Source: Pyropia yezoensis (lineage: Eukaryota; Rhodophyta; Bangiophyceae; Bangiales; Bangiaceae). From it: DNA of 64,000 nt. Position numbers and translations under genes: made by a program. The stretch lies in NCBI GenBank assembly GCA_009829735.1, contig CM020619.1:14189777-14253776 (forward strand), given 5' to 3'. Positions 6,325-25,238 of the stretch are shown piece by piece; positions within the stretch are counted from its first letter, which is position 1; each line of letters starts with the position of its first letter. The notes below the pieces were generated by a model. The model made no database searches, was not told the DNA's origin, and saw only the letters and a program-made list of their open reading frames with translations.

Positions 6325-6573
6325 GCGACCAGCATGCCGCCCGACGCCGTGGTGAGAAGGTCGTTAACCTTGGCTTTGGGGGTAACAGGCGTGCCCCCCC
6401 TTGCCACGTGGTGTGTAGTACCCGAGTCAACCATCCACTCGTCAGACCGGGTGGTGGCCACCGCCTGTGCGGCCATCTTGGAGGTGACCCGTGCCGCGTA
6501 GGCCAGCTTCTTGTCGTCCCCCTTGCCCTTGTCGTCGCCCCGGCCGCCGACCTTCTTCTTGTCGGTAGCCTTG
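6325..6573 (-). pseudogene. Ty1/copia protease fragment, downstream part of the split frame
   Basis: Minus-strand continuation of the copia gag at 25239-26077. It has a Lys/Gly/Asp-rich linker, then DEWMVDSGTTHHV, the aspartic-protease active-site region typical of copia polyproteins (D-S-G). It stops abruptly at the orphan LTR, so integrase, RT and RNase H are missing. If the 18.7-kb element B and one copy of its target duplication are removed, the frame runs on without a break from the gag CCHC region into this segment. That is strong evidence that both pieces come from one gene. Confidence 0.8.
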
Positions 6574-7112
6574 TGTGGGAGATTGGGCCGGAATTCGGTA
6601 CCAATACTTTGGAGATTCGGGTCAAGTGGACCTGACCGGAAGTCGAAATTCACCCGACCCACGATGGTGAAACTTCTGACTTCTGGACGGAAATTCGACT
6701 AGGACTTCCGACATACTAGAGCAGGGTAATGCTGCTGGTATTTGTTTCTTGGGATTTTTGCACGGGAGCCAGACGGATTTCTACGCTTTGAGTGCTTTGC
6801 ATGTGGAGTGATATGATTGGTTTGTTTGAGGGTTCATTTTCTGAGTGTTTTGAGGCGTTGCGTGAGCGTGTGAGGAGGGTTGATAAGGAGGGACAGCAAG
6901 GCGGGGAGGGTCCACCTTGGCTGGCCAAGCAAGTAAACACCGTCTGGCTCCGACACATCTTGTTCGTGCCTTGGTGAGCTGACCCGTTCACCACACGCAA
7001 GTTCCGTGTTCGGCTGTGTGGAGGTGCTTGCTTCCGGTGTCCCAAGTTGGGATATCGGCAATACTCCTCTTCCTTCCCTGACTCGGGGTTGGTGGTTGGG
7101 AGTACTGCTACA
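6574..7112 (+). repeat. Element B 5' LTR
   Basis: 539 bp, TGTGGGAG…CTACA. It is about 99% identical to the LTR at 24694-25232. It contains the palindrome TCCCAAGTTGGGA at 7040-7052. Two bases separate it from the primer-binding site at 7115. Confidence 0.9.
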
Positions 7113-7114
7113 GT

Positions 7115-7131: not shown

Positions 7132-7429
7132 AGAGGATATCGACTTCGGTACCTCCCTTGACCGGAGACGGGACCAAGTTGGCCCCTCTCCCCCTTCGGC
7201 ACCGAGACTTCCGGTGACACGATCGACTCGCCTACGTTCCGAGCGTTCGCTGGGTGACGAGGTTGGCCACCGTGAGTCTTGGTGGGAGACCCGGAGTTTC
7301 GGGATACCTCACCGCCTTCCTTGAGGTAGGTGGAGGGGTGGAACGTGCTCTAGGAACTCCCTAGCTGACGATCCCCGACTCTGGACACCGTTTGGTCGTT
7401 TTGGTTGACTCCACGTGACTCTTGTGGAG

Positions 7430-7788
7430 ATGGCTGGTGAGGGAGACCCCCCCATTGCGCCGAGTGTACCTGGGGAGGGGGAGCGTAGTCCTCCCCCGAC
7501 GGGCGGAGTACCACCCAGGCCGGGCAGTGCGGATGTGGTGGGTCCAGAGGTTGGACCCCGACGGCGGTCGGCCAGGTTCCTTCCCAGGCCGTCCCCGGAA
7601 GAGACGGGCGGAGGTCGCCCTTCTCCGGTGGGAGCGCCGAGCCAGCGTCAGGCTCCGGCAACCTCTTCGGGGAGTGACGACACTCACTTCGGCATGGGAC
7701 CGCCGACCGGCAGAGGTGACGGGACGGGGAGTTCCGTACCCCGGGTTGGTGGGTCCGCGCCACGACTGGTGTCGGAAGGACCGGGTGG
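7430..7788 (+). pseudogene. Gag of element B, N-terminal part
   Basis: ATG at 7430 (MAGEGDPP) opens a Pro/Gly/Ser-rich disordered N-terminus of 119 codons. It is cut at 7788 by the left LTR of element A, and the five bases GGTGG at 7784-7788 recur at 17168-17172 as target duplication. The last partial codon (two bases) is completed by base 17173, after which the frame matches the C-terminal gag part. The intact ancestor would have had 587 residues. Past 7788 the frame reads into LTR sequence to a stop near 8359. Confidence 0.85.
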
Positions 7789-8256
7789 TGTGGCAAAAAC
7801 CACTCGCACACACAGTACCCAAGTTGGGGCGGTGTGCGAGGGCTGCCTCCCGTGTCGGGGGAACCGGAAGAAGTGCAAGTCGCACACACTCTATCCCTGT
7901 TGTGGGGCAATCCCCCCACGGACAAACAAGAAGATGGTGTGTGGTCCAACAGTTTCTTGGTCGGGACGGGGACGCAGGGCCAAGCCCCGCTGTCCCTCCC
8001 CTTATCCCCCCAGGGTCCACTCAGAATCTCGCCACTCAGAATCTCCCACCCCAGCACCTGCCCACCGGGCCACACGAAAATTCAAGACGATAAATGCAGA
8101 AAACCCTCAAATCCAAGTTGGATTTACTACTAAGCTAACTATCCCGAACTTAGGGAATATGGACCCAAATGCAGGGGGAGGAACGGACCAGGCTAGTGGC
8201 CTGCCGCCCCTTGCATGGCACGTGTTGCCCCCTACCTGGGGGTCAATACTGCCACA
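7789..8256 (-). repeat. Element A 3' LTR (left copy)
   Basis: 468 bp with perfect 7-bp inverted termini. It contains 11-bp and 17-bp palindromes (7818-7828 and 8109-8125), both centred on CAAGTTG. Read on +, that is antisense to the element, it encodes a Cys/basic cluster (CLPCRGNRKKCKSH…CC…C). This strand leads into the antisense ORF at 8599, so the LTR may also serve as that ORF's promoter. Confidence 0.92.
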
Positions 8257-8598
8257 CTCCCCTCTCCTCAGTTCCGACCGACCCGGTCGGCCCTGTGAGG
8301 GGGTGCGTAAACGCACGTCTCGGCGTTGGGGGGGGACGCGACTTGCTGTCCCCCCTTGAGTACGTAACGCGGATGTGGAGGCGGTCACGTTGGCCGCCCC
8401 TCTCCTCAAGCTTGCCCACTTGGCAGCTTGCTCTCCCCGGTTCACACCTCACCACCACCACCACTTCTCCTTCACCTTACACGGGGCCACCCCACGCTGG
8501 GGAGGCCACCCGTTTACCCACGATCCGAGTCCCCCTCAACTCGAGGCGGGTCTCGTGCCGCGATAGCCAGGACGTCTCTCCCCAACTTGGGGAGAGCC

Positions 8599-10542
8599 AT
8601 GGCGACTCCGGGAGTGGAGACGGACTCTCTCGATGAGCGTATGGAGGACACCTCCTACGGTGCAGCGCCTGCCGGGACTTCCGGCGGGGGCTCCGCGATC
8701 GCTCCGGGGGGTGGGACTCCCGCGTCACCCGGCTTTGGGTTGACGGCAGGATCTCCCCCGGAGGCGGGACAAGTTGTCCCGCGTGAGGCCTTGGGGCGGT
8801 GGTTTTACCCCGCTTGGCCTCTGTATGAGGAGGGGTTGACTGTTCTTCGCTGTGGCCGACTCGGCGCAGCGATGGGTCGGGTATGGGACCGCCTACGGGA
8901 GAAGTATCCCCGTAGGGTCGGGTTCCCTGCCGGCTTCAGGACGGACCAGTTTGCCTTCCTGGACGACGAGGAGGTCGAGGACGTGCAGCGGGCCAAGGCC
9001 ATGGTGGACCGCGGGGGAACTATCCCGGGTCCCGGCGACTTGCCGATCTTCACTTGGGACGCGGTGGCAACTCGCCCCCCGTACCTTCACGAGGCCGATC
9101 CGCACACTCATCACTTTGATGTGCGGATGGAGAAGGACTTCCGGCGAGGTCCCTACTTGGTGACCTCGGCTCAACTTGAGTTTCCTCAGCAGTCTGCTGC
9201 CAGTAAGGAGCAATACTACCCGAAGAAGCCCGAGTGGTGGCCTCAAGTTGAGGTCCCCTACGGGTTCCCGGCATTGTTGCCACGGTTGCTTGACCACTTC
9301 GGCTCCGTCATGTTGACGGCTGGCCCTGATCATCTGGTGTGGGCCATGTTGGCCACCCAGTGGCTCCTCGAGGTCATGTCGACCTGGGTGTCATGTGTTC
9401 AGCGGCGGGGGATGCTCTGGCATCTCCCCCTCCGGCTCATCCAGGGTTTGGAACAGCTCACCCCTCAGCTAGTTGCTGAGGGGTGCTCGTCAGGACAACT
9501 CACTCTACTTGAGGAGATGCTCCGCCTCCACAAGTTTATCGAGTGGGAGAGCATTGAGCACAAGTTGCGCCGCCCCACTCGGGGGCCCAAGGACGATGGC
9601 GCACTTCGCCAGTTCGTGTGGGTCGCTCGTGAACTTCACGACGGCCGTGTGGTCCTACGAGAGGGGTTGGGCATCGGGGACTACCCGTATGCCCCGGGGG
9701 TGGATCGTCACACTGCGCCACCCCCGGACAAGCCCATAGTTATGGCTGTGCCCTCATATGATGACCATATGACTCAACCTACTGCGGGAGCCCCAAGTCG
9801 GGGTCGCAGTTACACCCGGGTACCGCCACCTCGGCGTGCCCCTCCGCTTCCTCCTGTTCCTTTCCAGCCTCACGGGAACATCCCGATCAGCGTGGCCGTG
9901 GAGTCATCCACACCGGTGTCTCCCAACTTGGGGGCCACCCTCCTGACGGTATACCCCAAGTTGGTGTTACCGCCCACGCCTCTAACCTCAGAGATGATGA
10001 TCACCACGTTGGTGCGCACCATTTCCTGGTTGGCCGCGTCGACCGCAACCCTCCAAAGTTCCGAGACTCCTCAACTTGAGGAGCGCGTTCGTACTGCAGT
10101 GGCGACCGCGAGTTGCGAGTCGGTGGCGGAGTTTATGACGGCCGAGTTGGCTCGCATTGGGGCTATTATGCCCCAGCCAACCCCACTTGGGCGTGGCAAG
10201 CGTCGTGCGAGCCGGGCATACTCGCCTCCTCGCCGTCGTCGCCGTCACTCGCGGCGCTCTCCCTCCGTGTCGGAAGACGAGTTGTCTTACTCCGTCTCGG
10301 AGTCCTCTACCCCATCGGAGACGGAGTCTGTCCAGCGTCTGCGTCGCAAACTTGCGCGCAAGACCAGGCAGAAGAGTAGCCACGGTCGGCGCCACTTGCG
10401 CGACCGTGAGGGGCGCGACGGTTCCGACTTGGAGCCGCCGCCCCTTCCAACGAGTGGAGACCGTTATCGGCGTGGGTCTCGCCGCTCGCCTCCACGTGAG
10501 GGCGAGGGCCGTGGAGTGGGAGAGTCTAGCATGCGTGCCTAG
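8599..10542 (+). CDS. Antisense accessory protein of element A (647 aa), novel
   Basis: An ATG at 8599 (MATPGVETDS) opens a 647-residue frame on the strand opposite gag-pol, between pol's stop and the 3' LTR. Order: an acidic/Gly-rich N-terminus; a globular middle (about residues 60-370) with Trp/Tyr-rich motifs such as WWPQVEVPYGFPALLP, FGSVML, MLWHLP and VVLREGLG; a Pro-rich linker; a helical segment; then an Arg/Ser-rich tail (about residues 530-640) like RS domains or nuclear-localisation segments. The globular part is clearly homologous to the antisense ORF of element B (24651-22735): shared WW..VEVP.GFPA, the FGSV block, LWHLP and REGLG….PYA.GV. I do not recognise it as any standard retroelement domain. 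Function unknown. A nuclear, nucleic-acid-binding or antisense-regulatory role is only inference. Confidence 0.8.
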   Translation: MATPGVETDSLDERMEDTSYGAAPAGTSGGGSAIAPGGGTPASPGFGLTAGSPPEAGQVVPREALGRWFYPAWPLYEEGLTVLRCGRLGAAMGRVWDRLREKYPRRVGFPAGFRTDQFAFLDDEEVEDVQRAKAMVDRGGTIPGPGDLPIFTWDAVATRPPYLHEADPHTHHFDVRMEKDFRRGPYLVTSAQLEFPQQSAASKEQYYPKKPEWWPQVEVPYGFPALLPRLLDHFGSVMLTAGPDHLVWAMLATQWLLEVMSTWVSCVQRRGMLWHLPLRLIQGLEQLTPQLVAEGCSSGQLTLLEEMLRLHKFIEWESIEHKLRRPTRGPKDDGALRQFVWVARELHDGRVVLREGLGIGDYPYAPGVDRHTAPPPDKPIVMAVPSYDDHMTQPTAGAPSRGRSYTRVPPPRRAPPLPPVPFQPHGNIPISVAVESSTPVSPNLGATLLTVYPKLVLPPTPLTSEMMITTLVRTISWLAASTATLQSSETPQLEERVRTAVATASCESVAEFMTAELARIGAIMPQPTPLGRGKRRASRAYSPPRRRRRHSRRSPSVSEDELSYSVSESSTPSETESVQRLRRKLARKTRQKSSHGRRHLRDREGRDGSDLEPPPLPTSGDRYRRGSRRSPPREGEGRGVGESSMRA

Positions 10543-10653
10543 TTGGCAGCTGCCTTTGTTGTGAGAGTGTGAGGGTTAGGGCTGTAGTTTAAAGCCACTC
10601 TGCGTACCACTTCGACTTGAAGCACTCTCTTGGCACTGTTGCTCGGCCTTCCC

Positions 10654-13600
10654 TCACGTTGAGGGAGGGCTGTTAGGGTCTATCTCGTTCCGGGCACAGT
10701 ACGCCCGGACCTTCTCAGCAGGAAGGTCCTCCACATACTCCCACGTATCGTCCTTGGCTTTGTAGCCAAACCAACGCACCCTCAACATGAGGCGGTCAGT
10801 ATCCTCATCCCAGCCGTGGTCGATGAACTTGTCGAACACGTACTCCTGCGGGCCCTGTTTGGCTGCAGGCAGCGAGGGCAGGCGCCACGTTTTCAAAGCA
10901 CGCGCCCAAGCTGGGTCGCCTGCAGGCGGTGGTGCAACCTTGACCACGTCCTGTCCGTTCACTGTGCGGACCCCATCGTCACTTTCGATGGTGAAGCGCC
11001 GCCCATCAGTACGAAGGACCTGGTACGGCCCCTTCGTCTGGAACACCAACTTACCCCCAGTTGGGGTGTGTGAGTGGACCAATACCCAGTCACCCTGCTC
11101 GGGGACATGCTTGGCGTTGCGCACCTTTTTGTCAAAGGTACGCTTGTAGCGCTTTTGTGCTTTGTCCATCTCAGCCCTGACTTTAGGGATGAGGTTTTCA
11201 AGCCTAGCAGCGAACTCCGCCTTACTCTCAGTAGGAGTGGGCGTACTGCCACCATCCTCCCTAGTTGGGAGCGGCCGCCGCACGGCAATAGACCGCACGC
11301 GACGGGGGGTCACAAAAGCGAGGGGTACTTCCCCGGTAGATGAGTGAACCTGCGAATTGTAGGCAGTGGTCAGAATAGAAATGTATTGGTCCCACGTCTT
11401 CACGTGCTCACTCACATAATGGCGCAGCTGCCTAACAATAGTTTTGTTGAAGCGCTCCACCTGCCCATTAGTTTGTGGGTGGTAGGGGGTGGCATAGTTT
11501 GCCTTAACCCCCAACATATCCAGCACTCCTTGAAACAGTACAGACGCAAATTGCGGTCCATTGTCCGATAGTGTACTATCCGGAATGCCATACGCGGCAA
11601 CCCAGTGATCTAGGAAGGCTGACACGACCGACATGGCCGTGATCTCTGCCAGTGGGATCGCTCGCGTAAGTTTCGTGAAGCGGTCACAGATGACCAGGAG
11701 GTACTGGTTGCCCTCCTCGGTCACTGGCAGTGGCCCAAGGATGTCCATCGCCAACGCGGCGAAGGGCTCCTTGGCCGGGAACAATAGCATAGCCGTAGTA
11801 GGCCGCCGTTCCATCAGACGGTTCTGTGCACAACTTGTGCAGGCAGCCACCCAACTGTAGATGTCCACCACCATGGACGGCCAGTAGTACCTGGTCCTCA
11901 GGGTCTGGTACAGTTTACTAGACCCCAGGTGTCCACCCGTGGGAGCGTTATGCTCCCTCTCAAGGATACTGTCCTTGAGGGATGCGGGGACGACAAGTTG
12001 TTCGGTCCCCTGGAATACCCCCCTCCTCATGAGGAGGCCATCGTCTCCCAGGAAGAACCGCGTCTCCGCCACTGTATCCAGGGTATCCCTCTGCGACTTG
12101 CAGAAGGGATCCTCGGCCTGGGCCTTCACTACTTCGTCCAGGGACAGGGGCAAGTACTGCTTGTTCCCTGGCGCCTCGGGATTCAACGCCTGACCCGAGC
12201 GCGTGACTACCCCCACGATGGGGATGTCCTCATCGACTGGGGTGGTGTCCAGCCCCTCGGTAGGTACCCGAGAGAGGCCGTCGGCAAGGGCATGTTGCCT
12301 GCCAGGTCGGTACTCAATATCAAAGTTGAAGGGTGCAAGTCGCACCCTCCACCGGTTGAGACGAGTGTTCGTACAGTCCGTCTTGAAGATGAACTGCAAC
12401 GCGCGGTGGTCGCAGCGGATGAGGAACTTCTCACCCTCTAGGTAGTGACGAAGTGACGTCACCGCCCATACCACTGCGAGTCCTTCCAACTCGGTGACTC
12501 CGTAGTTCTTCTCGGCCGAGTTTAGGCCCTTGCTGAAGTATCCCACCGGCAAGTACTCCTTGTCCGGCTGTTGCTGAAGCAACACACAACCAAGTTGGTC
12601 GTAGCTAGCGTCCACATCCAGGATGTAGTGGCCTCCCAACCTGGGAATAGCCAGGATAGGGGGCTTCAGCAGAAGGTCCCGAAGAGTCTCAAAGGATTCC
12701 TGCTCCACCCGACTTGGGGGAGGCAGGTTCTTCGGTAGCGTTGAGCTCACTAACTGATTCAACGGCTTCGCCACTTTGGCGAAGCCCTTAGTGAAACGTC
12801 GGTACACGTTACACATCCCGAGGAAGCTCCTCATCTGGGTCTGGGTCCGGGGGTACTGAGCCTTGCGGATGGCCCTCAAGTTTTTCTCGTTGACACTGAG
12901 ACGCCCCGGACGGACAACATGTCCCAAGTACTCCACCTCTTGAGTGAAGAGGTGGCACTTACTCGCCTTCAGTGACACTCCGGCGTCAGCAAGTAGCTTG
13001 AACACCTGGCCAAGATGGCCAATGTGTTCCTCCGGACTTCGGGAGAACACAATGATATCGTCTAGGTACACGAGACAGATCTGCCACCGTACTCCGGCCA
13101 GAATCATGTCCATAGCGCGCTGGAAAGTTGCCGGCGCGTTACACAGGCCAAACGGTAGACGCTTGCACTGGTAGGTACCACAGTGACAGGTAAAGGTAGT
13201 TTTATGCCTGTCCTCCGGGGCAATGGGAATTTGCCAGTACCCCGCGTTACAGTCCAGGGTAGAGAACACGTTTGCCTCCCCCAGAGAGTCCAGACAGTCA
13301 TCCATCCGAGGTAGGGGATAACTATCCTTCACCGTGCTCTCGTTGAGCTTACGGTAGTCGATACAGAACCGGGGGGTCCCATCAACTTTGGGGACGATCA
13401 CCACCGGACTCGCCCACTCGGCGTTGCTGGCCTCGATCACATCGAGGGCCTCCATGCGAGCAACTTGCTCCTTAACGAGGGCCCTTGAACGGGGTCCCCC
13501 CCTATACGGTTGTTGGCGTATAGGGGGCGCACCGGGTTTCAACTCGATCCGGTGTTGGGTAGCTCTCATGAGTCCCAATTGACCATCCCACAACTTGTGA

Positions 13601-14637
13601 TATTGGTCCAAGAGGCGTTCAACTTGAACCCTCAACCTGGGTGGAACACCCTCCATGTTTACCTGGGGCCGAGGAGAGGCGGCCGACTTGGCTTGATGCT
13701 TCTCCTTTCCGGACTGCGGGTCGCTACTTGCGCCCGCGCTGAGGGTGACCGCTACTACCGGTCCCTCGTGTTGGTCGATATAGCCGAACTTGGCCCCCGA
13801 CTTGAAGAACTTGGGCGACGAGCTCAGGTTCATCACCTGGATCCTCCACGGGACTCCGGCTTTGGAGTCCATCGTGCCAAGGGCAACATGCACTTGGTGC
13901 TTGCGAGCAAGACGGGGGTTAGGGTGCACCAACCCGTTCCCCGCATAATCAGTTACAACATCCACGTGCGCCACCGAGTTGGGGGGCAACATGACTTTAC
14001 GGGCTAAACGCAGAGTAGCAGTAAACCCTTCCCTCACAGAACAAACAGGCTTCGACTGTGAAACTGTCACAGGAGCCACAGACTTTCCCTTACCAAGGAT
14101 GGGGATAGTCTCCCCATTCATCAACTTGACCCAGTACTCAGGGCCACAAATCAAAGGCACTTGTGTTACGACATAAGGGGTACCCAGAAGCAGGGGTACC
14201 GATATATTCTCAACTACACCATAGGTCACGTCGACCTCATGGGTCCCCAACCGAGTTGGTAGGGTCACGGCACCAACGATGGGAAGTACCCCACCATTGA
14301 TATCGATCAGATGGTCAGCTTTAGACTTCCAGCGTTGGAGCCTCATCCCCTTTGGTAATAGCGACTTGCGTATCAAGGAGGCTCCTGACCCGGTATCAAG
14401 TACGATACGGACACAACAGGCGCGGCCGGGGGCAAGTTGCACCCGTCCAGCCACCTGGAAGTTCTCACCCGTCAGCACCGCGATGACCCGACGTGGGTTT
14501 ACGTTCTTGGGAAGTCCCACCCGAGGTGGGCGGACTCCCTTAGGTCGCCGCAGTATCCGACACGGTTGGTTCGTCCTCTTGGCCCACTTGGCCGAGGCTG
14601 CCGTTGTGAGCTTCGGACGACCAGCTCCAACGGTCAT
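10654..14637 (-). CDS. pol: Pol polyprotein of element A (PR-RT-RNaseH-IN-chromodomain)
   Basis: 1,327 residues, ATG at 14637 overlapping the gag stop as ATGA. Aspartic protease DTGSG near residue 80. Reverse transcriptase with FSTLDCNAGYWQIP and the catalytic YLDD near 525. RNase H begins DVDAS near 675. The integrase has an H-H-C-C zinc finger (GGHLGSSKLYQTL…CTSCAQ). Its catalytic triad is D in AMDILGP (about 963), D in LSDNGPQFA (about 1022) and E in NGQVERFNK (about 1061). A GPY/F-like segment (KGPYQVL) and a C-terminal chromodomain (VRWFGY…DDTWEYVEDLP, about 1265-1315) follow. Domain order PR-RT-RH-IN is diagnostic of Ty3/gypsy, and the chromodomain places it with chromovirus-type elements. 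No stops or frameshifts, so it is probably functional. Confidence 0.97.
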   Translation of the reverse strand: MTVGAGRPKLTTAASAKWAKRTNQPCRILRRPKGVRPPRVGLPKNVNPRRVIAVLTGENFQVAGRVQLAPGRACCVRIVLDTGSGASLIRKSLLPKGMRLQRWKSKADHLIDINGGVLPIVGAVTLPTRLGTHEVDVTYGVVENISVPLLLGTPYVVTQVPLICGPEYWVKLMNGETIPILGKGKSVAPVTVSQSKPVCSVREGFTATLRLARKVMLPPNSVAHVDVVTDYAGNGLVHPNPRLARKHQVHVALGTMDSKAGVPWRIQVMNLSSSPKFFKSGAKFGYIDQHEGPVVAVTLSAGASSDPQSGKEKHQAKSAASPRPQVNMEGVPPRLRVQVERLLDQYHKLWDGQLGLMRATQHRIELKPGAPPIRQQPYRGGPRSRALVKEQVARMEALDVIEASNAEWASPVVIVPKVDGTPRFCIDYRKLNESTVKDSYPLPRMDDCLDSLGEANVFSTLDCNAGYWQIPIAPEDRHKTTFTCHCGTYQCKRLPFGLCNAPATFQRAMDMILAGVRWQICLVYLDDIIVFSRSPEEHIGHLGQVFKLLADAGVSLKASKCHLFTQEVEYLGHVVRPGRLSVNEKNLRAIRKAQYPRTQTQMRSFLGMCNVYRRFTKGFAKVAKPLNQLVSSTLPKNLPPPSRVEQESFETLRDLLLKPPILAIPRLGGHYILDVDASYDQLGCVLLQQQPDKEYLPVGYFSKGLNSAEKNYGVTELEGLAVVWAVTSLRHYLEGEKFLIRCDHRALQFIFKTDCTNTRLNRWRVRLAPFNFDIEYRPGRQHALADGLSRVPTEGLDTTPVDEDIPIVGVVTRSGQALNPEAPGNKQYLPLSLDEVVKAQAEDPFCKSQRDTLDTVAETRFFLGDDGLLMRRGVFQGTEQLVVPASLKDSILEREHNAPTGGHLGSSKLYQTLRTRYYWPSMVVDIYSWVAACTSCAQNRLMERRPTTAMLLFPAKEPFAALAMDILGPLPVTEEGNQYLLVICDRFTKLTRAIPLAEITAMSVVSAFLDHWVAAYGIPDSTLSDNGPQFASVLFQGVLDMLGVKANYATPYHPQTNGQVERFNKTIVRQLRHYVSEHVKTWDQYISILTTAYNSQVHSSTGEVPLAFVTPRRVRSIAVRRPLPTREDGGSTPTPTESKAEFAARLENLIPKVRAEMDKAQKRYKRTFDKKVRNAKHVPEQGDWVLVHSHTPTGGKLVFQTKGPYQVLRTDGRRFTIESDDGVRTVNGQDVVKVAPPPAGDPAWARALKTWRLPSLPAAKQGPQEYVFDKFIDHGWDEDTDRLMLRVRWFGYKAKDDTWEYVEDLPAEKVRAYCARNEIDPNSPPST

Positions 14638-16580
14638 TCGTTTCCCGCCGACTTGGCGTCCGAATCTGAGGGCGAAGGGGACGACGACGAGTCCGAGGAC
14701 GACGTGTCCGCCCCCTCCGTCGAGGGTGTGGCGACCGCCACCACTGGTCGAGACCCACCCTCGCGGCGTGAACGCACTTCGTTCGTAGCCGACTTCTTAC
14801 TCGCATTCCTAACAAGCTGTTGGATGCGTTTACTCAACTTGGGGCAATCATATGCCCAGTGACCATCGGAGTTGCAGTTCCAACACCGATGATCAGTTCC
14901 CGGAGGGGTCTTCCCAACTGGGGAAGACGACGAGGTACCTTGGGAAGTTCCCACGGCAGCTACCACCCTCTCCTTGCGGATTCGGCGTGCCTCTCGCAAC
15001 TCTCTGGCCTGGCGCGCCTCTTCCCGTTCCTTGGCCAACTCGGCCTGACGCTCCTGGCGTTGTTCCTCCCGCAACTTGCGGTAGGCCTCGCCTCTGCGGT
15101 AGGCGAACCTAGCCAACTCGGCCAGGGTCGCCCGGGCAGTGTTATGCTCCCGGGTCTCCATCCGGACTGACCAGTGGAGTCCTTCCACAAACCGACTCTT
15201 CACCACAGCTTGTGGATGAAGAAACCCACAAAGATTGTTGAGCTTACGGACTCGCTCCGCAAAGGACAACTCGTCCTCCGCCTCTTCCTGATGGGCTTGC
15301 GTAAACTCCTCGACTTGAGAAGCCAACGCCGCTTCATCAACCATGGCCCTCAACAACCAGTTGACGAGCTCCAAATAGGACGTCACCTCCCCAGCGCCTC
15401 CACTTGAGGAGCTGGGCATGACGGACATAAGTTCTGTCCGCAGGTCTCCCTTCGTAAACTCCTGTAGCATGTAAAAAGCCATGCCTTCACTTATGGCATT
15501 GTCGTCACAGGCTTTTGTGAAACGACGTAGGAACTCAAAGACACGGAGGGGGGGAGTTCCATCCCACTCCGCTTTGTGCCCAAAAGAGTGAAGTGCATTC
15601 TTCTTGGCACGGCCCATGGCTCGGGCCTGGTCAGGACCATACGCCACCGACTTGTTGTGGAGGGCGTAGGTCTCACAGTCAAAGATCCTCTGGTAGACCG
15701 GGTTGGCTACCTGGATCTTGGGCGGCACCTCACGTTGAGGGAACAGCCGCTGTGGCACTGGGGTAAGTCCACCCTCAGTGCCTGTAGTCTGGTACGGCGA
15801 GCTTGGTGTAGCCGCCGGCGTTTCCGAGGGGAACTCCCCCGTGAAGGGCGTACGCCCCACCGCGTATGGTGTGGCTCCCTCGTTGGGAGTCACAGGTGTC
15901 GCCCCCAGTTCGGGGCGACCCGAGATAGGCGTGGGGAGGGATTCCCCCTGCGCCTGTGGGCTCGAAAGCCCCAATCCGGTCTGGACATTCAGGCCATCTG
16001 GCAAACTCGCTACAATCTGATTCAGAATAGTATTCGTCATCGTGACCACCAGGTCCGGCAAAGTCTGCCGCAACACATTGGTCGCCTCCCGACGGACAGT
16101 TTCCGCGAGGAGTGGATTGACGACTCCAGTTGAGTCTCGGTCCGCCTCCGGGAGTCCACCTGAGGGGTAACCACGTTCCTCAGGGGTCTCAACCGGGGGC
16201 ATGGGCGCGAGCCCATCGCCGACCAACGGAGGTCCGCCGTCCTCCGAAAGCCTAGTTGGCGATGGCTCCATGCCAAAGTTGGCTCCAACCCGAGTGGAAC
16301 TCGCGGGGACAGTCCTCACCCCTTGGGACGTTCCCGTTGAGTATACCACGCGGTGGCCAGACTTCGGCCCACCCACGTCAGAAGTGTCACCCGAGTGAAC
16401 TCCCGACTGAGTCGGGGTGGCCTGTTGCCCGCCCGCACTTCCAGTCCTGCTGGCTTGAGGGACCTCTAGTCCCTCTGCGACCCCAGGTAAACCCACCTGT
16501 GTCTCACCAGTATTCAAAGGCACTGAAGTACGTGCGTCACCCGTGTACTCCCCGGACGACGGGGGGTCCGAGCTAGCCAT
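14634..16580 (-). CDS. gag: Gag of element A
   Basis: ATG at 16580 (MASSDPP), 648 residues. The N-terminal half is disordered and Pro/Gly/Thr-rich. The capsid-like region (about 300-480) includes NPVYQRIFDCETY, EWDGTPPLRVFEFLRRF and a helical zone. A Glu/Arg-rich coiled-coil stretch (REEQRQERQAEL…) follows, then a CCHC zinc knuckle, CWNCNSDGHWAYDCP, near 565 (C-x2-C-x4-H-x4-C). Ser/Asp-rich C-terminus. The same order and key motifs occur in gag B (CWQCSKSGHWAAQCP). Gag ends in TGA sharing ATGA with the pol start, which suggests termination-reinitiation rather than ribosomal frameshifting for pol expression. Confidence 0.93.
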   Translation of the reverse strand: MASSDPPSSGEYTGDARTSVPLNTGETQVGLPGVAEGLEVPQASRTGSAGGQQATPTQSGVHSGDTSDVGGPKSGHRVVYSTGTSQGVRTVPASSTRVGANFGMEPSPTRLSEDGGPPLVGDGLAPMPPVETPEERGYPSGGLPEADRDSTGVVNPLLAETVRREATNVLRQTLPDLVVTMTNTILNQIVASLPDGLNVQTGLGLSSPQAQGESLPTPISGRPELGATPVTPNEGATPYAVGRTPFTGEFPSETPAATPSSPYQTTGTEGGLTPVPQRLFPQREVPPKIQVANPVYQRIFDCETYALHNKSVAYGPDQARAMGRAKKNALHSFGHKAEWDGTPPLRVFEFLRRFTKACDDNAISEGMAFYMLQEFTKGDLRTELMSVMPSSSSGGAGEVTSYLELVNWLLRAMVDEAALASQVEEFTQAHQEEAEDELSFAERVRKLNNLCGFLHPQAVVKSRFVEGLHWSVRMETREHNTARATLAELARFAYRRGEAYRKLREEQRQERQAELAKEREEARQARELREARRIRKERVVAAVGTSQGTSSSSPVGKTPPGTDHRCWNCNSDGHWAYDCPKLSKRIQQLVRNASKKSATNEVRSRREGGSRPVVAVATPSTEGADTSSSDSSSSPSPSDSDAKSAGNE

Positions 16581-16680
16581 GTTGGCTAACGATCCGTATG
16601 ACACGGTCCAAGTCCACCGTTCCTCTGAGACAGAGGGCCCCCTACACCCGGGTGCACCCGGAGGTAAAGTTTACCTCTGT

Positions 16681-16697
16681 CCCCTGCTGCTCCACCA
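16681..16697 (-). promoter_or_regulatory. Primer-binding site of element A
   Basis: On the minus strand TGGTGGAGCAGCAGGGG starts two bases inside the 5' LTR (16700-17167). It begins with the TGG expected opposite a tRNA CCA end and nearly matches the site of element B at 7115. Confidence 0.65.
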
Positions 16698-16699
16698 AA

Positions 16700-17167
16700 T
16701 GTGGCAAAAACCACTCGCACACACAGTACCCAAGTTGGGGCGGTGTGCGAGGGCTGCCTCCCGTGTCGGGGGAACCGGAAGAAGTGCAAGTCGCACACAC
16801 TCTATCCCTGTTGTGGGGCAATCCCCCCACGGACAAACAAGAAGATGGTGTGTGGTCCAACAGTTTCTTGGTCGGGACGGGGACGCAGGGCCAAGCCCCG
16901 CTGTCCCTCCCCTTATCCCCCCAGGGTCCACTCAGAATCTCGCCACTCAGAATCTCCCACCCCAGCACCTGCCCACCGGGCCACACGAAAATTCAAGACG
17001 ATAAATGCAGAAAACCCTCAAATCCAAGTTGGATTTACTACTAAGCTAACTATCCCGAACTTAGGGAATATGGACCCAAATGCAGGGGGAGGAACGGACC
17101 AGGCTAGTGGCCTGCCGCCCCTTGCATGGCACGTGTTGCCCCCTACCTGGGGGTCAATACTGCCACA
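16700..17167 (-). repeat. Element A 5' LTR (right copy)
   Basis: 468 bp, apparently identical to 7789-8256. In the minus orientation this is the upstream LTR driving gag-pol. The target duplication GGTGG follows at 17168-17172. Confidence 0.92.
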
Positions 17168-17172
17168 GGTGG

Positions 17173-18577
17173 GAGCTCGAGTCAAGCTCCACCTGGCTCA
17201 TCCGGTATCGTGGATGACTCGGTGATGACTGCCATCGCACAAGTCGTGCGAGAGGAGGTGGGGAAGGCGTTGAAGGGGAACACCCCTCCGCCTGAGCAGG
17301 CCTCGAGGCGTCAGAAGCGACGGGAGATTCGACGTACTCTCCGTCGTGAGGTGGACTCAGAGTCTGAGTCCTCTACAAGTGGCAAGTCGGGTGAAGAGGA
17401 TCTTACCCGACGTGGTCGTGTGACTTACACGGACCGTCTTGGGACTAGAGTCGTCCCAGGAAAGATAGTGGTGAATAATCCATTGTTCAAGGATGTCTTC
17501 GACTGTGAGACATATGGGTTGGTCAACAAGTCGTTGACCTACTCGAATAGTCAGGCCCGTACCCTGGGCCGGCGCAAGAAACACGTTGCGCAATCCTTCG
17601 GGGTCCGTTCAGAATGGGACGGGACACCACCCCTGAAGGTCTTCCAGTTTTTGCGGAAGTTCGCAAAAGCCTGCGATGACAATGATGTCTCTGAAGCTGA
17701 AGCGTTTTTCATGCTTCAGGACTTCACCAAGGAGCCACTCCGCTCCGAGGTGATGAACGTCATGCCAAGTCGGCATGGTGGGAACCCGGGTGAGGTGACC
17801 TCCTACCTGGAGTTGGTTAATTGGATCCTTCGTCTTCACGCAGACGAGGCTTCCTTGGCTGTGCAGGTTGAAGAGTTCAACCGCGCCACCCAGAGTAAGG
17901 GTGAAGAGGAACGCGAGTTCGCTGAACGACTCCGTCAGCTGAACGTCCTCTGTGGATTTCTATATCCCCAAGGAGTCATTAAGGGACGCTTTGTGGAGGG
18001 TTTCCACCGAGCAGCTCGAGCGACTGTGCGAGAGCGTAATACTCCGACCATGACTCTGGCGGAGTTGGCACTCATCGCCCAGACTAAGGGTGATGAGTAC
18101 CGCTGGCTCGTGTCTGAGCAGCGGAAGGAACGAGAGAAAGAAGCTAAGGGAGTGGAAGCAAGTCGCTTCCGCAGAACTGCAAGGGTGCCTCCCTACACGC
18201 GGACGTACCCTGCAGTACCTTCGTCCTCAACTCGAGAGACGAAAGGTATGGTGGCCGCTATCCCTGATAAGTCACAGGGAAAAGCGGGGCCATCGGCGTC
18301 AATGAGTGATCGGCCGTGTTGGCAGTGTTCCAAGTCGGGACACTGGGCAGCCCAATGCCCCACTCTGGACGTTCGACTGAGAGCCCTGTTGGCTCGTATT
18401 GGGAAGCTCGGTATTCCGAGGACTGATTCGGATACCCGGCCGCACACCACACGTGTGACGGCCATGACTCAACCTCAGTCAGAGAATGAGTCCACGCTTG
18501 AGAAGGGGGAAACCTCTTCCCCCAGCTCAAGTGGCAAGGATACTCCATCATCCGAGTCGGATGAGGGAAACGCCTAG
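17173..18577 (+). pseudogene. Gag of element B, C-terminal part
   Basis: Continues the frame opened at 7430 once element A is removed. It carries the capsid-like region (NPLFKDVFDCETY, EWDGTPPLKVFQFLRKF), a charged helical zone, a CCHC knuckle CWQCSKSGHWAAQCP at about 18318-18360 and a Ser/Glu-rich tail ending at TAG 18575-18577. The close correspondence with gag A shows that the two elements belong to one clade but to different families. Present transcripts from B's LTR would run into element A, so this part is probably not expressed as Gag. Confidence 0.9.
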
Positions 18578-18615
18578 CCGCTGGGACTAAGACTGACCCA
18601 AAGGCTCCAGCGGTA

Positions 18616-21600
18616 ATGAAGCGGGTTGCTTCACACTCACCGACCCATGGGAGAGTGAAGGTCCTGACTCGACCTCGAGGGGTGAGGCCTAGAGACAAGG
18701 TCCCTCCTCAGAAGCACGACCCGAGTCGGATTGTGTCAGTGCTGGTAGGGAGTAACTACCAGGTCGCAGCTCGACTCTGGCTGCAGGATGGAAATGAGTT
18801 TACCTCTCGCGTCATAGTCGACACAGGCTCTGCTGCCTCTCTCATTAGGCAAGACTTATTGCCAGAGGGGACGGATGTGAGCCCCGCCGGCTCACCCGAG
18901 TGGCGTATGTTTGATGTCAATGGGGGACTCCTCCCCATTGTTGGGTCTATTGCATTGACTGTTTGCATTGGGTTCTACCAGACGCAGGTGAACTTTGGAG
19001 TAGTCTCCAATATGTCAGTTCCCGTACTCCTGGGAACTGACTATCTGGACCTCCATGTCCCGGCCGTCTGTGGACCGGAAGGGGTAATCGGAATGCGTAA
19101 TGGAGAGACTGTCCCCATATTGCGTAAAGGGAGGACTATTTCCCCTACGATTCATCAACCTAGGGAAAACTCTCCCAAGGGTGGAGGCTCTACGACCCAT
19201 GTACGAGTATGTAAGGGTACGGTAGTCCCGCCCCGATCAAGGACCTTTGTGCGAGTACGCACACGGTTTCGAGGGAATGGACTCGTTTCCCCCGTGGACC
19301 GAGTCTATCATACTCACCAAGTGCAAGTTGCATGGGGCCCCATGACTTGTGGGGATGACCAAACTTGGTGGGTGGAGGTCCTCAACACGTCGGAGGAACC
19401 TCGACGACTCCCCGGAGGCATGAAGATTGCGTCGATCTCTACCTTTGAGGGGAATGTCGTTGCTGTGACTCAACAGCAATGGAAGGATATTGGAACGGCA
19501 GGCTCTGCCGACCAATCGAGTTCATCGACGGCTAAGTCGCCGACGGTACATCGGGAGAACATCCCGGAGTGTTTACATGGACGACTGGATGAGTTAATCC
19601 AGAAACATAACAAGTTGTGGAATGGTGACCTTGGGCTCATCAAGGCCACCGAACACAGAATCGTGTTGAAGCCAGGGGCTAGGCCAGTTCGCCTGAGTCC
19701 CTACCGTATGGGACCAGACTCACGGGAACTCACCCGAGAGCAGGTCCAACGGGTGCAAGACATGGGTGTCATTGAGCCTTGCTCAAGTGAGTGGGCCAGT
19801 CCCATAGTCTTGGTGCCCAAGTCAGACGGCACGATGAGGTTCTGCATCGACTATCGTAAACTAAAAGAACGGACGGTAAGGGATAGTTACCCCTTACCCC
19901 CTATGGACGATTGCCTCGACTCACTCGGTGAGGCACAGTACTTTTCCACGTTGGACTGCAACGCGGGGTACTGGCAGATACCCATCCGCAAGGAGGACAG
20001 ACACTTGACCACCTTCACGTGTCACTGTGGAGTTTATCAGTGTACACGGCTCCCTTTCGGGCTTTGTAATGCACCTGCGACTTTCCAGCGTGCTATTGAC
20101 TTGATACTTGCCGGAGTCAAGTGGCAGATCGCCCTGGTGTATCTGGACGATATCATTGTGTTCTCCGGGACTGCCGAAGAACACCTGTCCCACTTGGACA
20201 GAGTGTTTACCCTGTTGGGTGAAGCAGGAGTAACACTCAAACCTACGAAGTGTCACCTCTTTAGTAATGAGGTGGAGTACCTCGGCCATATAGCCCGGCC
20301 AGGTCGCATTCTGGTCAATGAGAAGAACCTCATGGCCATCCGTCGGGCGAAGTTCCCCCAGACGCAGACACAACTCAGGAGCTTCCTGGGTATGTGTAAC
20401 GTAAACAGACGCTTTGTGGCGAACTATGCCAAAGTGTCTGCACCGTTGAACCACTTGGTAAGTTCCAAGATGCCCAAGCGCTTGGATGCTCCCAAACCCC
20501 CGGAGCAAGAAGCGTTTGATGGGTTGCGAGAGCTCCTCTGCAACCCACCGGTGTTAGCGATCCCCAGACCGGGGGCTCACTACATTGTTGATGTGGACGC
20601 AGGTCACGACCAACTCGGTTGTTGCTTACTCCAACAACAGCCTTCGGGGGAGTATTTACCCGTTGGCTACTTTAGCAAAGGACTCTCACCGGCCCAGAAG
20701 AACTATTCTGTGACGGAGGTGGAGGGCCTTGGCGTAGTATGGGCAGTCTCCATGCTACGGCCATACATCGAAGGAAGGAAGTTCCTCATTCGATGTGACC
20801 ACAAGGCTTTGAAGTGGATACTCACCACTACAGCCTGTACGAATAACCGACTCAATCGATGGCGACTCTGCCTCGCTGAGTTCGATTATGACGTTGAATA
20901 TCGGCCAGGCCCGAAGCATGCGGTTGCGGACGCGTTGTCTCGCATACCGACGGATGGGAAAGACTCTTCCCCCATCCCTGAGGAACTCCCTCATGTGGCA
21001 GTGACCACTCGCTCCGGAACTGTCCTCGACCCGAGGATGCCTGGCATGGCCAAGCTATTACCCGTGTCTCTGGATGAGTTTGTCCAGGCACAGGAGAGCG
21101 ACAAACTTTGTCGACGACTCAGGAAGGAGCTCGACCAGGCTCAACCGACTCGGTTCTTCCTGAATGACAACGGCATACTCTGCCGTAAGGGAAATACCCA
21201 GGGGGACAAGCAAGTCGTCGTCCCCAAGGAGTTACGCAAGAGTATCCTCCAACGGGAGCACTCCTCACCGTTGGGTGGACACCCAGGGTCTACGAGGATG
21301 TACCAGACCCTACGCAAGAAGTACTATTGGCCATCACTCGTGGCTGATGTGTACCGGTATGTAGCCGCATGCGCGACTTGCGCAAAGAATAGACTCATGG
21401 AGTCCCGGCAGACTTCTTCCATGAGACTTTTTTCCTGCAACAGAGCCGTTTGCAGCGATAGCAGTGGACTTACTCGGTCCACTACCACGAACACCTGAAG
21501 GATATGAGTACCTTCTGGTGATGTGTGATCGCTTTACTAAGCTCACACGGGTATCCCCACTCAAGGATATCACAGCCGTGGACGTTCTGAGTGAGTTACT

Positions 21601-22606
21601 CGACGTCTGGGTTGCCAGTTATGGCATCCCCGACTCTATCCTTTCGGATAACGGACCACAGTTTGCGTCCGTCCTGTATCAGGGAGTCATGAAGATGTTG
21701 GGGGTGCAGACGAATTTCGCAACCCCTTACCACCCCCAGACTAATGGGCAGGTGGAACGATTCAACAGGACTCTAGTGCGCCAGTTGCGTCACTATGTCC
21801 ATGACCATGTAGTCACATGGGCTCGTTATGCGTCACTACTCGTGACAGCATACAACTCCCAGGTACACAGTAGTACGGGAGAGGCACCGTTTGCCTTCGT
21901 CTGCCCCCGACGACTTCCGTCAGTAGCTGTGGACCGTCTCACCCAGACAGAGGGTGAGACTTCGACTCAAACACCGAGTCAGGCGAAAGCCTCCCTACTC
22001 CAGAGACTGGAGGAGATGATACCCCTTGTCCGGGCTACTATGGAGAAGGCCCAAGCTCGTTACAAGAGGTACTTCGATGTCCGAGTCAGACATCGTCGCG
22101 ATCCGCTCCGAGTTGGAGATTGGATTTATGTCAACTCCCACGACAATAAGAGAGGGAAATTGGTCTTCAAAACTCTGGGACCATATCACATCCTTAAGAC
22201 GGATGGACGGCGGTTAACCATCGAGAGTGATGATGGTATCCGGACGATAAATGGGAATCACGCGACTCGCGCACCCGAACCCCCAGAGGGAGATCCCGCT
22301 TGGGAAAGGGCCTTGCAAGCATGGAAAGTCCCATCCTTGCCGACCTCCTCCAATAAACCGTTGGAGGCGGTGTTCGACAAGTTTGTCGGACACGGATACG
22401 ATGAGTCGGGGCGACTCATGCTCCGAGTCAGGTGGTTCGGGTATGGACCAACTTCCGACACATGGGAGTTTGTAGAGGACCTACCAGTAGAGAAGGTCCG
22501 TAGATACTGCCAGGCTGCGGGCATATCTATACGCCGACGTAGCACTCGTACGTCGGGGGATGAAGTTCCTGCTCCAAGTCAGAGCAGAGCGGCAAGCCAA
22601 CCATGA
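18616..22606 (+). pseudogene. pol: Pol of element B with a 1-bp frameshift
   Basis: ATG at 18616, 38 bases after the gag stop. Protease DTGSA; RT with FSTLDCNAGYWQIP and YLDD near residue 508; RNase H DVDAG; integrase zinc finger (GGHPGSTRMYQTL…CATCAK); integrase core with VDLLGP, LSDNGPQFA and NGQVERFN; chromodomain VRWFGY…SDTWEFVEDLP at the end. The frame shifts in a six-T run at 21428-21433: compared with element A, one T is extra. Upstream the product ends at 21498. The remaining integrase and chromodomain are open from about 21434 to 22606. Everything else is intact, so this is a recent lesion or possibly a sequence error. Confidence 0.93.
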
Positions 22607-22734
22607 GTACAAACGCATACCATGGTTCTTCAAAGATTCTCTACTAACAAAGCCGACTATGGCACAATACAAAGCGAGAAGAACACACACCACTCTTCTC
22701 GCCAAGAAAAGAACAAGTCGTTCGACCGCTGACT

Positions 22735-24651
22735 CTAGCGTTCCATATGCCCACCCCCACTACTATAGGGACCGCCCGACCACGAACCCCCAGGGTCGTA
22801 GGCCGGTAGCGGAGGGGCGTAACCCACTCGGGAAGGCCCCGGAGTGGAAGCACTGGGAGGGGCCCGCCGACTCGCGGACCCATCCCCGTCGTAAGAAAGA
22901 TGTCCGGTGGTACTCCCTCCGTGACGCGGAAGCTGCTGCTGAGTCGACAGCAGCCGTTGGACAAACTCGTGTCCAACCGCGAGGCGAGTGACCTCAGCTG
23001 CCAATGACTGTCGCGCCGTGGCTGAGTCGCCCGACGCGAGGAAGTGACTGACACGCCGGGTGACCCAAGCCAACGTGTCAAGGGAGGCCACGAGTGAGGC
23101 CTCCACCGTGGCGTCATACATGATGGCTCCCAAGTTGGGAAGCATCTCGCCGAAGCCACGCGGAATCGGCATCGGGACCGGAGTTCGGACCCGTAGCGAA
23201 CCCAACGCCACGTCGGGGAAGGGTTCGAGGAACTGGAAGGGTGGAGCCTGAGTCGGCTCCACACCCCCCGAGGTCGGAGTCGCGACCCGCGGGGAAGACG
23301 TCGGCACAGCTCGCCCGCGGCTTCGAGGGGCTCCTCGATGAGCACCACAACGAGTCGTCGCCGATGACGTCGCCCACCCAGAGCCAGGGGGCGACGTAGA
23401 GGGAGTAACCCCCTCCGCGTAGGGAAGGGAAGGGTCCCCCAACCCCTCACGCAGGAGCAGCTGCCCCTGCACCAGAGTATGGGTGACATGGACGAACTCC
23501 CGGGGTGGCTCACTCTCCGACCCCGGCTCTGAACGCTTGTTGCGGCGGAGGAAGGGGTCCAGCTGCACCCAATCGAGTCGATTGTGCAGGGTGACCATAC
23601 CCTCGAGGAGGAACGGAGCCAGGTCCCCCGCACCCAAGGCTAACCAGTGGAAGCCAAGGGTTTCCATACCCTCCACCAGAGCCGGTGGGAGGTGCCACAG
23701 GTAACCCCGATGGACTACATCGGAGTACCAGCCCCGAGCCACCACGACCACCCAGTGCGTGGCAAGGTAGGCGAAGACCCGGTTGCCCTCCGAGCTGGAG
23801 CGTAGCACGGAGCCAAAGTAGGCAACGAGGAGGGGGATCCGAGCCGGAAACCCACAAGGTACCTCCACTGACTCCCACCACCCTGGGAGAAGAGGGTACT
23901 GGTGCTCACGCTCCTCCAGAGGTACGTGGGTGAACTCCACCCGCGACCCGTGGATGAGGAAGCCCGAGGAGCCCCGGAGTCGGAACTCCTCTCGCACCAC
24001 ACCGTGTTGGGCGTGGGCGTCCTCTCCGCCCAGGTAGGGACGAGGAAGGGCACACCACTCGGTAGACACCACCGCGTGGGTTTCGTCGATCTCCACGTCG
24101 CCCGACCCCATGGCGAGGGAGGTTGACAACGCCTGGACTTCAGGCGCGTCCGCCAGGCAGAGTAGCGCTGGTAGGTCGCAGACCACCCCATCAGGTAGAG
24201 TCACCTGGTTGGGATACCGACGAGTCCGGCGGTACCATACGTCGGTCCGCCGTGGCTCGGGGATGATCAAGTAGACATCCTTGAGCTTGCAGTCGGGAAG
24301 CTCCCCGACTGACTTGGGAGGCGCCCAGGCTCGGGGTCCCATAGGAGGACGGGGCCGCGGCGGGAGTAGCAGCCGCGACTCAGGAAGGCGGGGGATGGGA
24401 GTCACATCCCCTTCCGCCACCGGGTTGGAAGACCCATCCCCCGGTGGGACCACAGCCGAGGGGGCAGTAGGAGGTGATGGAGCGGGGACGGCTGAGGCGG
24501 CCGCCTCCGACCCTCGCCCGGGACGAGTCGTCTCCATGGCCGACCCCCGGCTGAGAGACTCCGCAGTCCCGAGGGCCTCCTCTCCCGCCCGTCGCTTGTC
24601 CGACAGAGACGTCGGGGACGGGGACGAAGGCCGACTCGGCTCACCCGCCAT
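22735..24651 (-). CDS. Antisense accessory protein of element B (638 aa), novel
   Basis: ATG at 24651, only 43 bases from the 3' LTR, reading back toward pol and ending about 130 bp from the pol stop. Order: a Ser/Pro-rich N-terminus; a globular middle with DVYLIIPEP, WWESVEVPCGFPARIP, YFGSVL, LATHWVVVVARGW, GYLWHLP and LLLREGLG; a Pro/Ser linker; a helical segment (GFGEMLPNLGAIMYD…LVASLDTLAWVTRR); and a Gly/Ser/Pro tail. It is homologous over the middle to the antisense ORF of element A but strongly diverged in both tails. Conservation of frame, length and position across two diverged elements argues that the protein is under selection. I know no named family for it. Confidence 0.8.
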   Translation of the reverse strand: MAGEPSRPSSPSPTSLSDKRRAGEEALGTAESLSRGSAMETTRPGRGSEAAASAVPAPSPPTAPSAVVPPGDGSSNPVAEGDVTPIPRLPESRLLLPPRPRPPMGPRAWAPPKSVGELPDCKLKDVYLIIPEPRRTDVWYRRTRRYPNQVTLPDGVVCDLPALLCLADAPEVQALSTSLAMGSGDVEIDETHAVVSTEWCALPRPYLGGEDAHAQHGVVREEFRLRGSSGFLIHGSRVEFTHVPLEEREHQYPLLPGWWESVEVPCGFPARIPLLVAYFGSVLRSSSEGNRVFAYLATHWVVVVARGWYSDVVHRGYLWHLPPALVEGMETLGFHWLALGAGDLAPFLLEGMVTLHNRLDWVQLDPFLRRNKRSEPGSESEPPREFVHVTHTLVQGQLLLREGLGDPSLPYAEGVTPSTSPPGSGWATSSATTRCGAHRGAPRSRGRAVPTSSPRVATPTSGGVEPTQAPPFQFLEPFPDVALGSLRVRTPVPMPIPRGFGEMLPNLGAIMYDATVEASLVASLDTLAWVTRRVSHFLASGDSATARQSLAAEVTRLAVGHEFVQRLLSTQQQLPRHGGSTTGHLSYDGDGSASRRAPPSASTPGPSRVGYAPPLPAYDPGGSWSGGPYSSGGGHMER

Positions 24652-24693
24652 CTTGAATAACCTTGACCAACTCGGTGAGGTTGAGCACGGGGG

Positions 24694-25232
24694 TGTGGGA
24701 GATTGGGCCGGAATTCGGTACCAATACTTTGGAGATTCGGGTCAAGTGGACCTGACCGGAAGTCGAAATTCACCCGACCCACGATGGTGAAACTTCTGAC
24801 TTCTGGACGGAAATTCGACTAGGACTTCCGACATACTAGAGCAGGGTAATGCTGCTGGTATTTGTTTCTTGGGATTTTTGCACGGGAGCCAGACGGATTT
24901 CTACGCTTTGAGTGCTTTGCATGTGGAGCGATATGGTTGGTTTGTTTGAGGGTTCATTTTCTGAGTGTTTTGAGGGGTTGCGTGAGCGTGTGAGGAGGGT
25001 TGATAAGGAGGGACAGCAAGGCGGGGAGGGCCCACCTTGGCTGGCCAAGCAAATAAACACCGTCTGGCTCCGACACATCTTGTTCGTGCCTTGGTGAGCT
25101 GACCCGTTCACCACACGCAAGTTCCGTGTTCGGCTGTGTGGAGGTGCTTGCTTCCGGTGTCCCAAGTTGGGATATCGGCAATACTCCTCTTCCTTCCCTG
25201 ACTCGGGGTTGGTGGGTGGGAGTACTGCTACA
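24694..25232 (+). repeat. Element B 3' LTR
   Basis: 539 bp. Six differences from 6574-7112 by eye. It is followed by GTCTTG, matching GCCTTG before the 5' LTR apart from one base. Confidence 0.9.
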
Positions 25233-25238
25233 GTCTTG

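What the first reader, a model, noticed from the sequence alone, without database searches (positions are those of the whole stretch)
8599..24651. Two Ty3/gypsy chromovirus-type elements share a large conserved antisense accessory protein
Seen: element A (8599-10542, +) and element B (24651-22735, -) each carry a frame of about 640 codons between pol and the 3' LTR, in antisense to gag-pol. The two proteins share ordered motifs (WW..VEVP.GFPA, FGSV, LWHLP, REGLG…PYA.GV) although the elements belong to different families. Known: some plant Ty3 elements (Tat lineage, for example Ogre/Grande/Retand relatives) have extra ORFs, some antisense, but these are not, to my knowledge, homologous to this protein or found with a chromodomain. 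Inferred: selection keeps it, so it serves the element, perhaps in the nucleus as the RS-rich tail of A suggests, or as antisense control of pol.
Basis: partly seen in the sequence, partly recalled or inferred. Interest (0 to 1): 0.9.

Follow-up and report, generated by a model that had tools for sequence, protein, structure and literature searches.

The report
Antisense gene in seaweed retrotransposons
Several families of jumping genes in a red seaweed genome carry, read backwards next to their usual genes, an extra protein gene that natural selection has preserved; such layouts are known from flowering plants and a fungus, but this protein is not a recognised one and what it does is unknown.

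Summary
Observation confirmed. Two nested LTR retrotransposons (A inside B) each hold a ~640-codon frame antisense to gag-pol, between pol and the 3' LTR; the proteins are homologous (165 bits, E 1e-47). They code: among stop-free distinct copies dN/dS is 0.114 for ORF-A (core 0.057; pol 0.108) and a weaker 0.372 for ORF-B (pol 0.142); the antisense frame has the lowest ratio of six. Copies are many: 121 of 150 scored ORF-A copies have a frame of 720 aa or more. The core recurs, same place and strand, in lineage D and, more weakly, E and F. These lineages share one side of an RT-tree split; two loci of another chromodomain lineage lacked it. Relatives occur in Pyropia vietnamensis. The layout is a known kind (antisense aORF-3R of Grande, RIRE2, Retand, Boty), but the protein matches no Pfam family, TRP28 of Retand included. 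Best guess: a nuclear, nucleic-acid-associated accessory protein made from an antisense transcript. Transcription, location and function are inferred. Structure prediction failed (mean pLDDT 35 and 43).

The parts
6573..7114 (+). Element B, 5' LTR
   Evidence: 98.9% identical to 24693-25234 over 542 bp
7784..7788 (.). Target-site copy GGTGG left of element A
7789..8256 (-). Element A, 3' LTR
   Evidence: 100% identical to 16700-17167
8257..8269 (-). Element A, polypurine stretch beside the 3' LTR
   Evidence: read; role inferred from position
8599..10542 (+). ORF-A, antisense to gag-pol, 647 aa
8869..9708 (+). ORF-A conserved core, residues 91-370 (dN/dS 0.057)
10159..10539 (+). ORF-A Arg/Ser-rich tail, residues 521-647
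   Evidence: R 0.23, S 0.17; dN/dS 0.223
10654..14637 (-). Element A pol: RT, RNase H, integrase, weak chromodomain
10699..10833 (-). Chromodomain match of A pol (residues 1269-1313; 19.5 bits, below cut-off)
14634..16604 (-). Element A gag with zinc knuckle
16700..17167 (-). Element A, 5' LTR
17168..17172 (.). Target-site copy GGTGG right of element A
17168..18577 (+). Element B gag, part right of the A insertion (frame listed from 17126, inside the LTR of A)
   Evidence: zinc knuckle 20.4 bits against a cut-off of 20.8
18616..21498 (+). Element B pol, first of two overlapping frames (RT, RNase H, integrase zinc domain)
21464..22606 (+). Element B pol, second frame (integrase core, weak chromodomain)
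22735..24651 (-). ORF-B, antisense to gag-pol, 638 aa
23392..24261 (-). ORF-B conserved core, residues 131-420 (dN/dS 0.415)
24693..25234 (+). Element B, 3' LTR (41 bp from the ORF-B start codon)

Best explanation
These are LTR retrotransposons with genes on both strands. A group of chromodomain Ty3/gypsy lineages in this red alga carries, besides gag and pol, a third gene read tail-to-tail against pol from the 3' LTR side. Shown here: it codes for a protein, is kept by purifying selection (strong in A, weak in B), and shares place, orientation and a core sequence across several lineages. Inferred: an antisense transcript starting in or beside the 3' LTR is translated; the product has a largely helical core and, in A, E and F, an Arg/Ser-rich tail that takes it to the nucleus or to RNA; it acts in trans as a regulatory accessory factor of the element (transcription, RNA handling or escape from silencing), as proposed for GENE23 of Grande.
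For: Homology A-B. dN/dS 0.114 (A) and 0.372 (B), lowest of six frames; 77% and 51% of changes at third codon positions. 28 of 28 loci L009-L036 have the pol end beside the ORF on the opposite strand. 121 of 150 scored ORF-A copies have frames of 720 aa or more. A/B profile against D, E, F: 22.2, 10.8, 13.5 bits, each above all 200 window-shuffles; hhalign AB-D 94.6%, AB-F 76.7%, E-F 98.3%. Arg/Ser-rich tails in A, E, F. 41 bp between the ORF-B start codon and the LTR, so a promoter in the LTR is the simplest reading. Nuclear location of GENE23 of Grande and its antisense transcription are reported in PMC7264820.
Against: No RNA or protein data. ORF-B is under weaker constraint than pol of the same copies (0.372 against 0.142). 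B and D lack the Arg/Ser-rich tail. AB-E is only 30.7% by hhalign, and D does not match E or F directly; the E profile does not find B (132 of 200 shuffles score as high). No fold: both models are of low confidence.
Confidence: 0.45

Rival explanations
1. The antisense RNA, not the protein, matters: antisense transcription over the 3' region dampens the element, and the open frame is incidental.
For: Antisense RNA control is discussed for other elements in PMC7264820 (passages). Constraint on ORF-B is weak.
Against: Protein-level conservation across deep lineages, dN/dS 0.057 in the ORF-A core, third-position bias and long open frames are not expected of a non-coding RNA. An RNA role in addition is not excluded.
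Confidence: 0.1
2. The product is a structural or particle component (a second coat or envelope-like protein, or a nucleocapsid helper) made from the antisense strand.
For: Largely helical predicted core, low-complexity tails, size near that of gag.
Against: No Pfam match; hhalign against gag scores at control level; the helical prediction rests on low-confidence models; transmembrane segments were not tested.
Confidence: 0.15
3. The protein counters host silencing (an anti-silencing factor), which would explain hundreds of near-identical copies.
For: 125 of 150 scored ORF-A copies are identical over 180 aa and all 150 scored D copies are at least 99%, so these families spread recently. Anti-silencing proteins are known for other plant transposons (recalled).
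Against: No direct evidence; no relation to such proteins tested beyond Pfam. Recent spread needs no anti-silencing.
Confidence: 0.15
4. It is a remote member of the plant TRP28 (PF04195) antisense proteins, so one ancient family shared by plants and red algae.
For: Same place and orientation; TRP28 is reported for all but two of 63 Retand clusters (PMC11963269, section 11 part 1).
Against: PF04195: 0 matches in the whole genome at E <= 10, and 0 Pfam matches in 16 aligned members at E <= 10. That paper places TRP28 only in flowering plants, in non-chromovirus elements. No TRP28 sequences were on hand for a profile-profile test.
Confidence: 0.1

Closest known systems
Antisense aORF-3R of plant Grande, RIRE2 and Retand (Retand: TRP28, PF04195)
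   Same: Ty3/gypsy elements with a long ORF between pol and 3' LTR, antisense to gag-pol, kept in most copies
   Different: Retand is a non-chromovirus lineage of flowering plants; PF04195 not detected here; pol-3'LTR region 2.9-6.6 kb there, 2.4 and 2.1 kb in A and B
Boty elements of Botrytis with antisense gene brtn
   Same: Antisense extra gene between pol and 3' LTR, outside plants (PMC7264820 section 5; title cited in PMC8365987)
   Different: Fungal host; the brtn sequence was not on hand, so homology is untested
HBZ of HTLV-1
   Same: Protein encoded antisense near the 3' LTR of a retroelement; nuclear (passage of PMC11963269)
   Different: A retrovirus; a bZIP protein (recalled); ORF-A and ORF-B match no Pfam family

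Membership tests
Ty3/gypsy LTR retrotransposon | LTR pair, zinc-knuckle gag, pol order protease-RT-RNase H-integrase | tested here: met
   the protease match is weak (E 0.09 and 0.13), B gag knuckle just under the cut-off
Ty3/gypsy LTR retrotransposon | Target-site duplication | tested here: inconclusive
   GGTGG on both sides of A; none clean for B
Chromovirus | Chromodomain after integrase | tested here: inconclusive
   A 19.5, B 18.9, E 20.2, D 12.3 bits, all under the cut-off of 25.1; F 38.4 bits, over it
aORF-3R element (layout class) | Long ORF between pol and 3' LTR, antisense to gag-pol | tested here: met
aORF-3R element (layout class) | ORF kept in most copies of the family | tested here: met
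   ORF-A: 121 of 150 scored copies with a frame of 720 aa or more, of 2766 candidates
aORF-3R element (layout class) | Antisense transcript and nuclear product, as for Grande | not testable with these tools
   No RNA or protein data
TRP28 (PF04195) antisense proteins of Retand | TRP28 domain | tested here: not met
   a link too remote for the Pfam profile is not excluded
Retand lineage | Non-chromovirus lineage of flowering plants | tested here: not met
   Chromodomain after integrase in F over the cut-off, weaker in A, B, E; relatives named are Bangiales red algae

The most novel reading that the evidence does not exclude
An undescribed protein family is an ancient, dedicated antisense third gene of a whole clade of red-algal chromodomain retrotransposons, kept through divergence so deep that only a core of about 100 residues remains recognisable. 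These would be ambisense LTR retrotransposons whose antisense protein is needed in the life cycle, evolved apart from plant TRP28 and fungal brtn.
Probability: 0.45. Interest if true: 0.8.

Novelty: new variant of a known kind. Interest (0 to 1): 0.68.

Why it matters
Antisense genes of LTR retrotransposons have long lacked an assigned function. A further family, with no detected relation to the plant one, in a red alga and beside chromodomain pol, with measured purifying selection and traces in several lineages, suggests that an antisense accessory gene repeatedly pays off for these elements. Many near-identical copies in a 107 Mb genome make stranded RNA, proteomics and tagging experiments practical.

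Tried and rejected
Module swap between lineages: L038 seemed to join a B-like ORF to a foreign pol, but 500 N lie between them; dropped. Sense-strand coding: the 61-bit sense pair holds stops and mirrors the antisense pair. Structure: two AF2 jobs, mean pLDDT 35.4 (whole ORF-B, 16 rows) and 42.7 (core, 12 rows); no fold search was run on them. PDB by sequence: 0 rows for ORF-A, one row at E 1.1 for alignment A2. Plasmids, viral contigs and prokaryote contigs: no relative. PHROGs: none for ORF-A and ORF-B. Literature: 'retrotransposon' + 'antisense ORF' + 'red alga' gave 0 papers; later searches on chromovirus, red alga and antisense failed, so I do not claim that nothing is in print.

Own slips: searches counted the window copy of B twice (L017 is that copy) and included copies with stops; one search repeats the ratios without them. 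The F row of the alignment was cut at the wrong place; one search replaces it. One search paired one hit with a neighbouring copy's RT.
Full report
WHAT IS THERE. Two Ty3/gypsy elements are nested. Element A (7789-17167, gag-pol on the minus strand) has identical 468-bp LTRs, GGTGG on both sides, a polypurine stretch beside the 3' LTR and a primer-site-like sequence after the 5' LTR. It lies inside element B (6573-25234, gag-pol on the plus strand), whose LTRs are 98.9% identical and whose pol in this copy is in two overlapping frames. A and B are 57-65% identical in pol and 48% in gag. Each has one long frame between pol and the 3' LTR on the opposite strand, 647 and 638 aa. The stops of pol and of this frame face each other across 111 and 128 bp.

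HOMOLOGY. BLASTP: 165 bits, E 1e-47, 30% over 461 columns. In six-frame translations of the two regions the antisense pair scores 162 bits; the only other pair at E <= 1e-3 is a 61-bit mirror with stops. No Pfam or PHROGs match for either at E <= 1, nor any Pfam match at E <= 10 for the 16 members of A2.

COPIES. The search with the ORF-A core scored 150 of 2766 candidates: all 150 match, 125 at 100% over 180 aa, none with a stop inside; 121 of 150 have an open frame of 720 aa or more. With the ORF-B core, 150 of 2673 candidates were scored; of 150 listed rows 107 are at 55% or more (some of them pieces, some with stops) and 43, at 37-40%, lie at the A-B level of identity and are taken as A family (one of them, L042, was checked). 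In all 28 loci L009-L036 (8 best rows, 20 best, one being the window's own B) the pol end lies beside the ORF on the opposite strand. Of six further, mostly divergent loci, five show the same layout; in L038 an assembly gap separates the ORF from the pol of another family.

SELECTION. Nei-Gojobori ratios pooled over pairs of distinct, stop-free copies: ORF-A, 6 copies, whole 0.114, core 0.057, tail 0.223; pol C-terminus of these copies 0.108. ORF-B, 14 copies, whole 0.372, core 0.415; pol 0.142. The earlier sets (8 and 17 copies; two A and two B copies with stops, the window's B twice) gave 0.135 and 0.420. ORF-B with the more distant L040 and L041: 0.299. ORF-B against L037, 0.37 at dS 1.27, near saturation. 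The antisense frame has the lowest ratio of six; 77% (A) and 51% (B) of changes fall on third positions. So constraint is strong in A, as strong as on pol; in B it is real but weaker than on pol.

OTHER LINEAGES. A third lineage, D, has a long frame in the same place. The A/B profile matches D, E and F with 22.2, 10.8 and 13.5 bits; the best of 200 window-shuffles reach 5.2, 1.9 and 2.9. Reverse tests in the same call: D finds A (17.2) and B (5.7), F finds A (12.0) and B (5.9), E finds A (6.5), all above their shuffles; E does not find B (132 of 200 shuffles as high), and D with E or F is at shuffle level (4 to 65 of 200 as high). hhalign: AB-D 94.6% (score 69), AB-F 76.7% (50), AB-E 30.7% (41), E-F 98.3% (120), D-E and D-F 1% (24); 15 controls (reversed alignments, gag, pol) reach at most 26. 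So E and F are clearly related, D is clearly related to A/B, and the E/F link to A/B is probable. The E core also finds an ORF-A copy genome-wide at E 2.8e-5 (place read). The matches fall on one core, roughly W(W)..VE...P...(Y/H)(F/V)..(S).L...(W)...(L)W/.LP. D: 150 of 2193 candidates scored, all at 99% or more, one with a stop in the 186 aa. E: 6 copies at 86-100%, and 21 weaker hits at 24-31% that include F. Of these 27 hits, 15 have one of 27 RT rows that I copied from the 150 within 7 kb; all 15 are on the opposite strand and 14 print as convergent (the other was paired with a neighbouring copy's RT). In an RT tree of 15 rows the rows of A, B, C (L037/L044, half filled), D, E, F and one F-like RT (L077, not examined for the ORF) form one side of a 100/100 split; the order inside is mostly unresolved and the root is unknown. 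The eight rows on the other side belong to a lineage with a strong chromodomain (52.5 bits, L045); in its two downstream stretches read (L045, L046) no related frame was found (best 4.6 bits; 7.3 bits in a pol locus).

ELSEWHERE. Relatives of ORF-B: four P. vietnamensis proteins at 46-52%, others in unnamed contigs at 50-97%, and one at 34%; fragments; one relative of ORF-A at 97%. P. vietnamensis is in the Bangiales. Their genomic context could not be read. None in plasmids, viral contigs or prokaryote contigs. The protein search needs shared 5-residue words, so wider spread is open.

KNOWN KIND. [quoted passage not shown] Retand antisense ORFs carry TRP28 (PMC11963269: passages and section 11 part 1 read). 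The Boty gene brtn is named in PMC8365987 (passages). PF04195 finds nothing here. By layout this is an aORF-3R element; by the test available it is not a TRP28 element.

HOW IT LIKELY WORKS. Shown: coding, constraint, shared place. Inferred: antisense transcription from the 3' LTR side; a nuclear or RNA-bound product because of Arg/Ser-rich tails in A, E and F, which B and D lack; a regulatory role in trans. Both structure models are of low confidence, so no fold is claimed.

Noticed in passing
L047 (G000:C2:13762862-13766000), pol frame 3-1937, residues 496-565: Pol of lineage E carries, after the chromodomain, a match to phage-type Dam DNA adenine methyltransferase (PF05869, 30.0 bits over a cut-off of 28.1; PHROG 111 DNA methyltransferase, E 1.9e-5). 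PDB by sequence: none.
   Followed up: partly
L068 (G000:C3:125200-129800), pol frame 2915-4600 (-): Pol of lineage F runs on for about 220 residues after its chromodomain without a Pfam or PHROGs match.
   Followed up: partly
window 5834-6325: A further LTR of the A family, 92-93% identical to the LTRs of A, without an element attached in this stretch; possibly a solo LTR.
   Followed up: no
window 16670-16699 and 7115-7150: A and B have nearly the same primer-site-like sequence two bases inside the 5' LTR; the priming tRNA was not sought.
   Followed up: no
window 37379-38128 (-) and 38839-40647 (-): Frames that by eye resemble Tc1/mariner-like and pogo-like transposases (labels recalled, no call).
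   Followed up: no
window 24836-26077 (-): Frame that by eye resembles a Copia-type gag (label recalled, no call); it overlaps the 3' LTR of B.
   Followed up: no
window 54351-54850; L038 2392-2891; L012 1-1424: Runs of N; the one in L038 had made a false chimera of two element families.
   Followed up: yes
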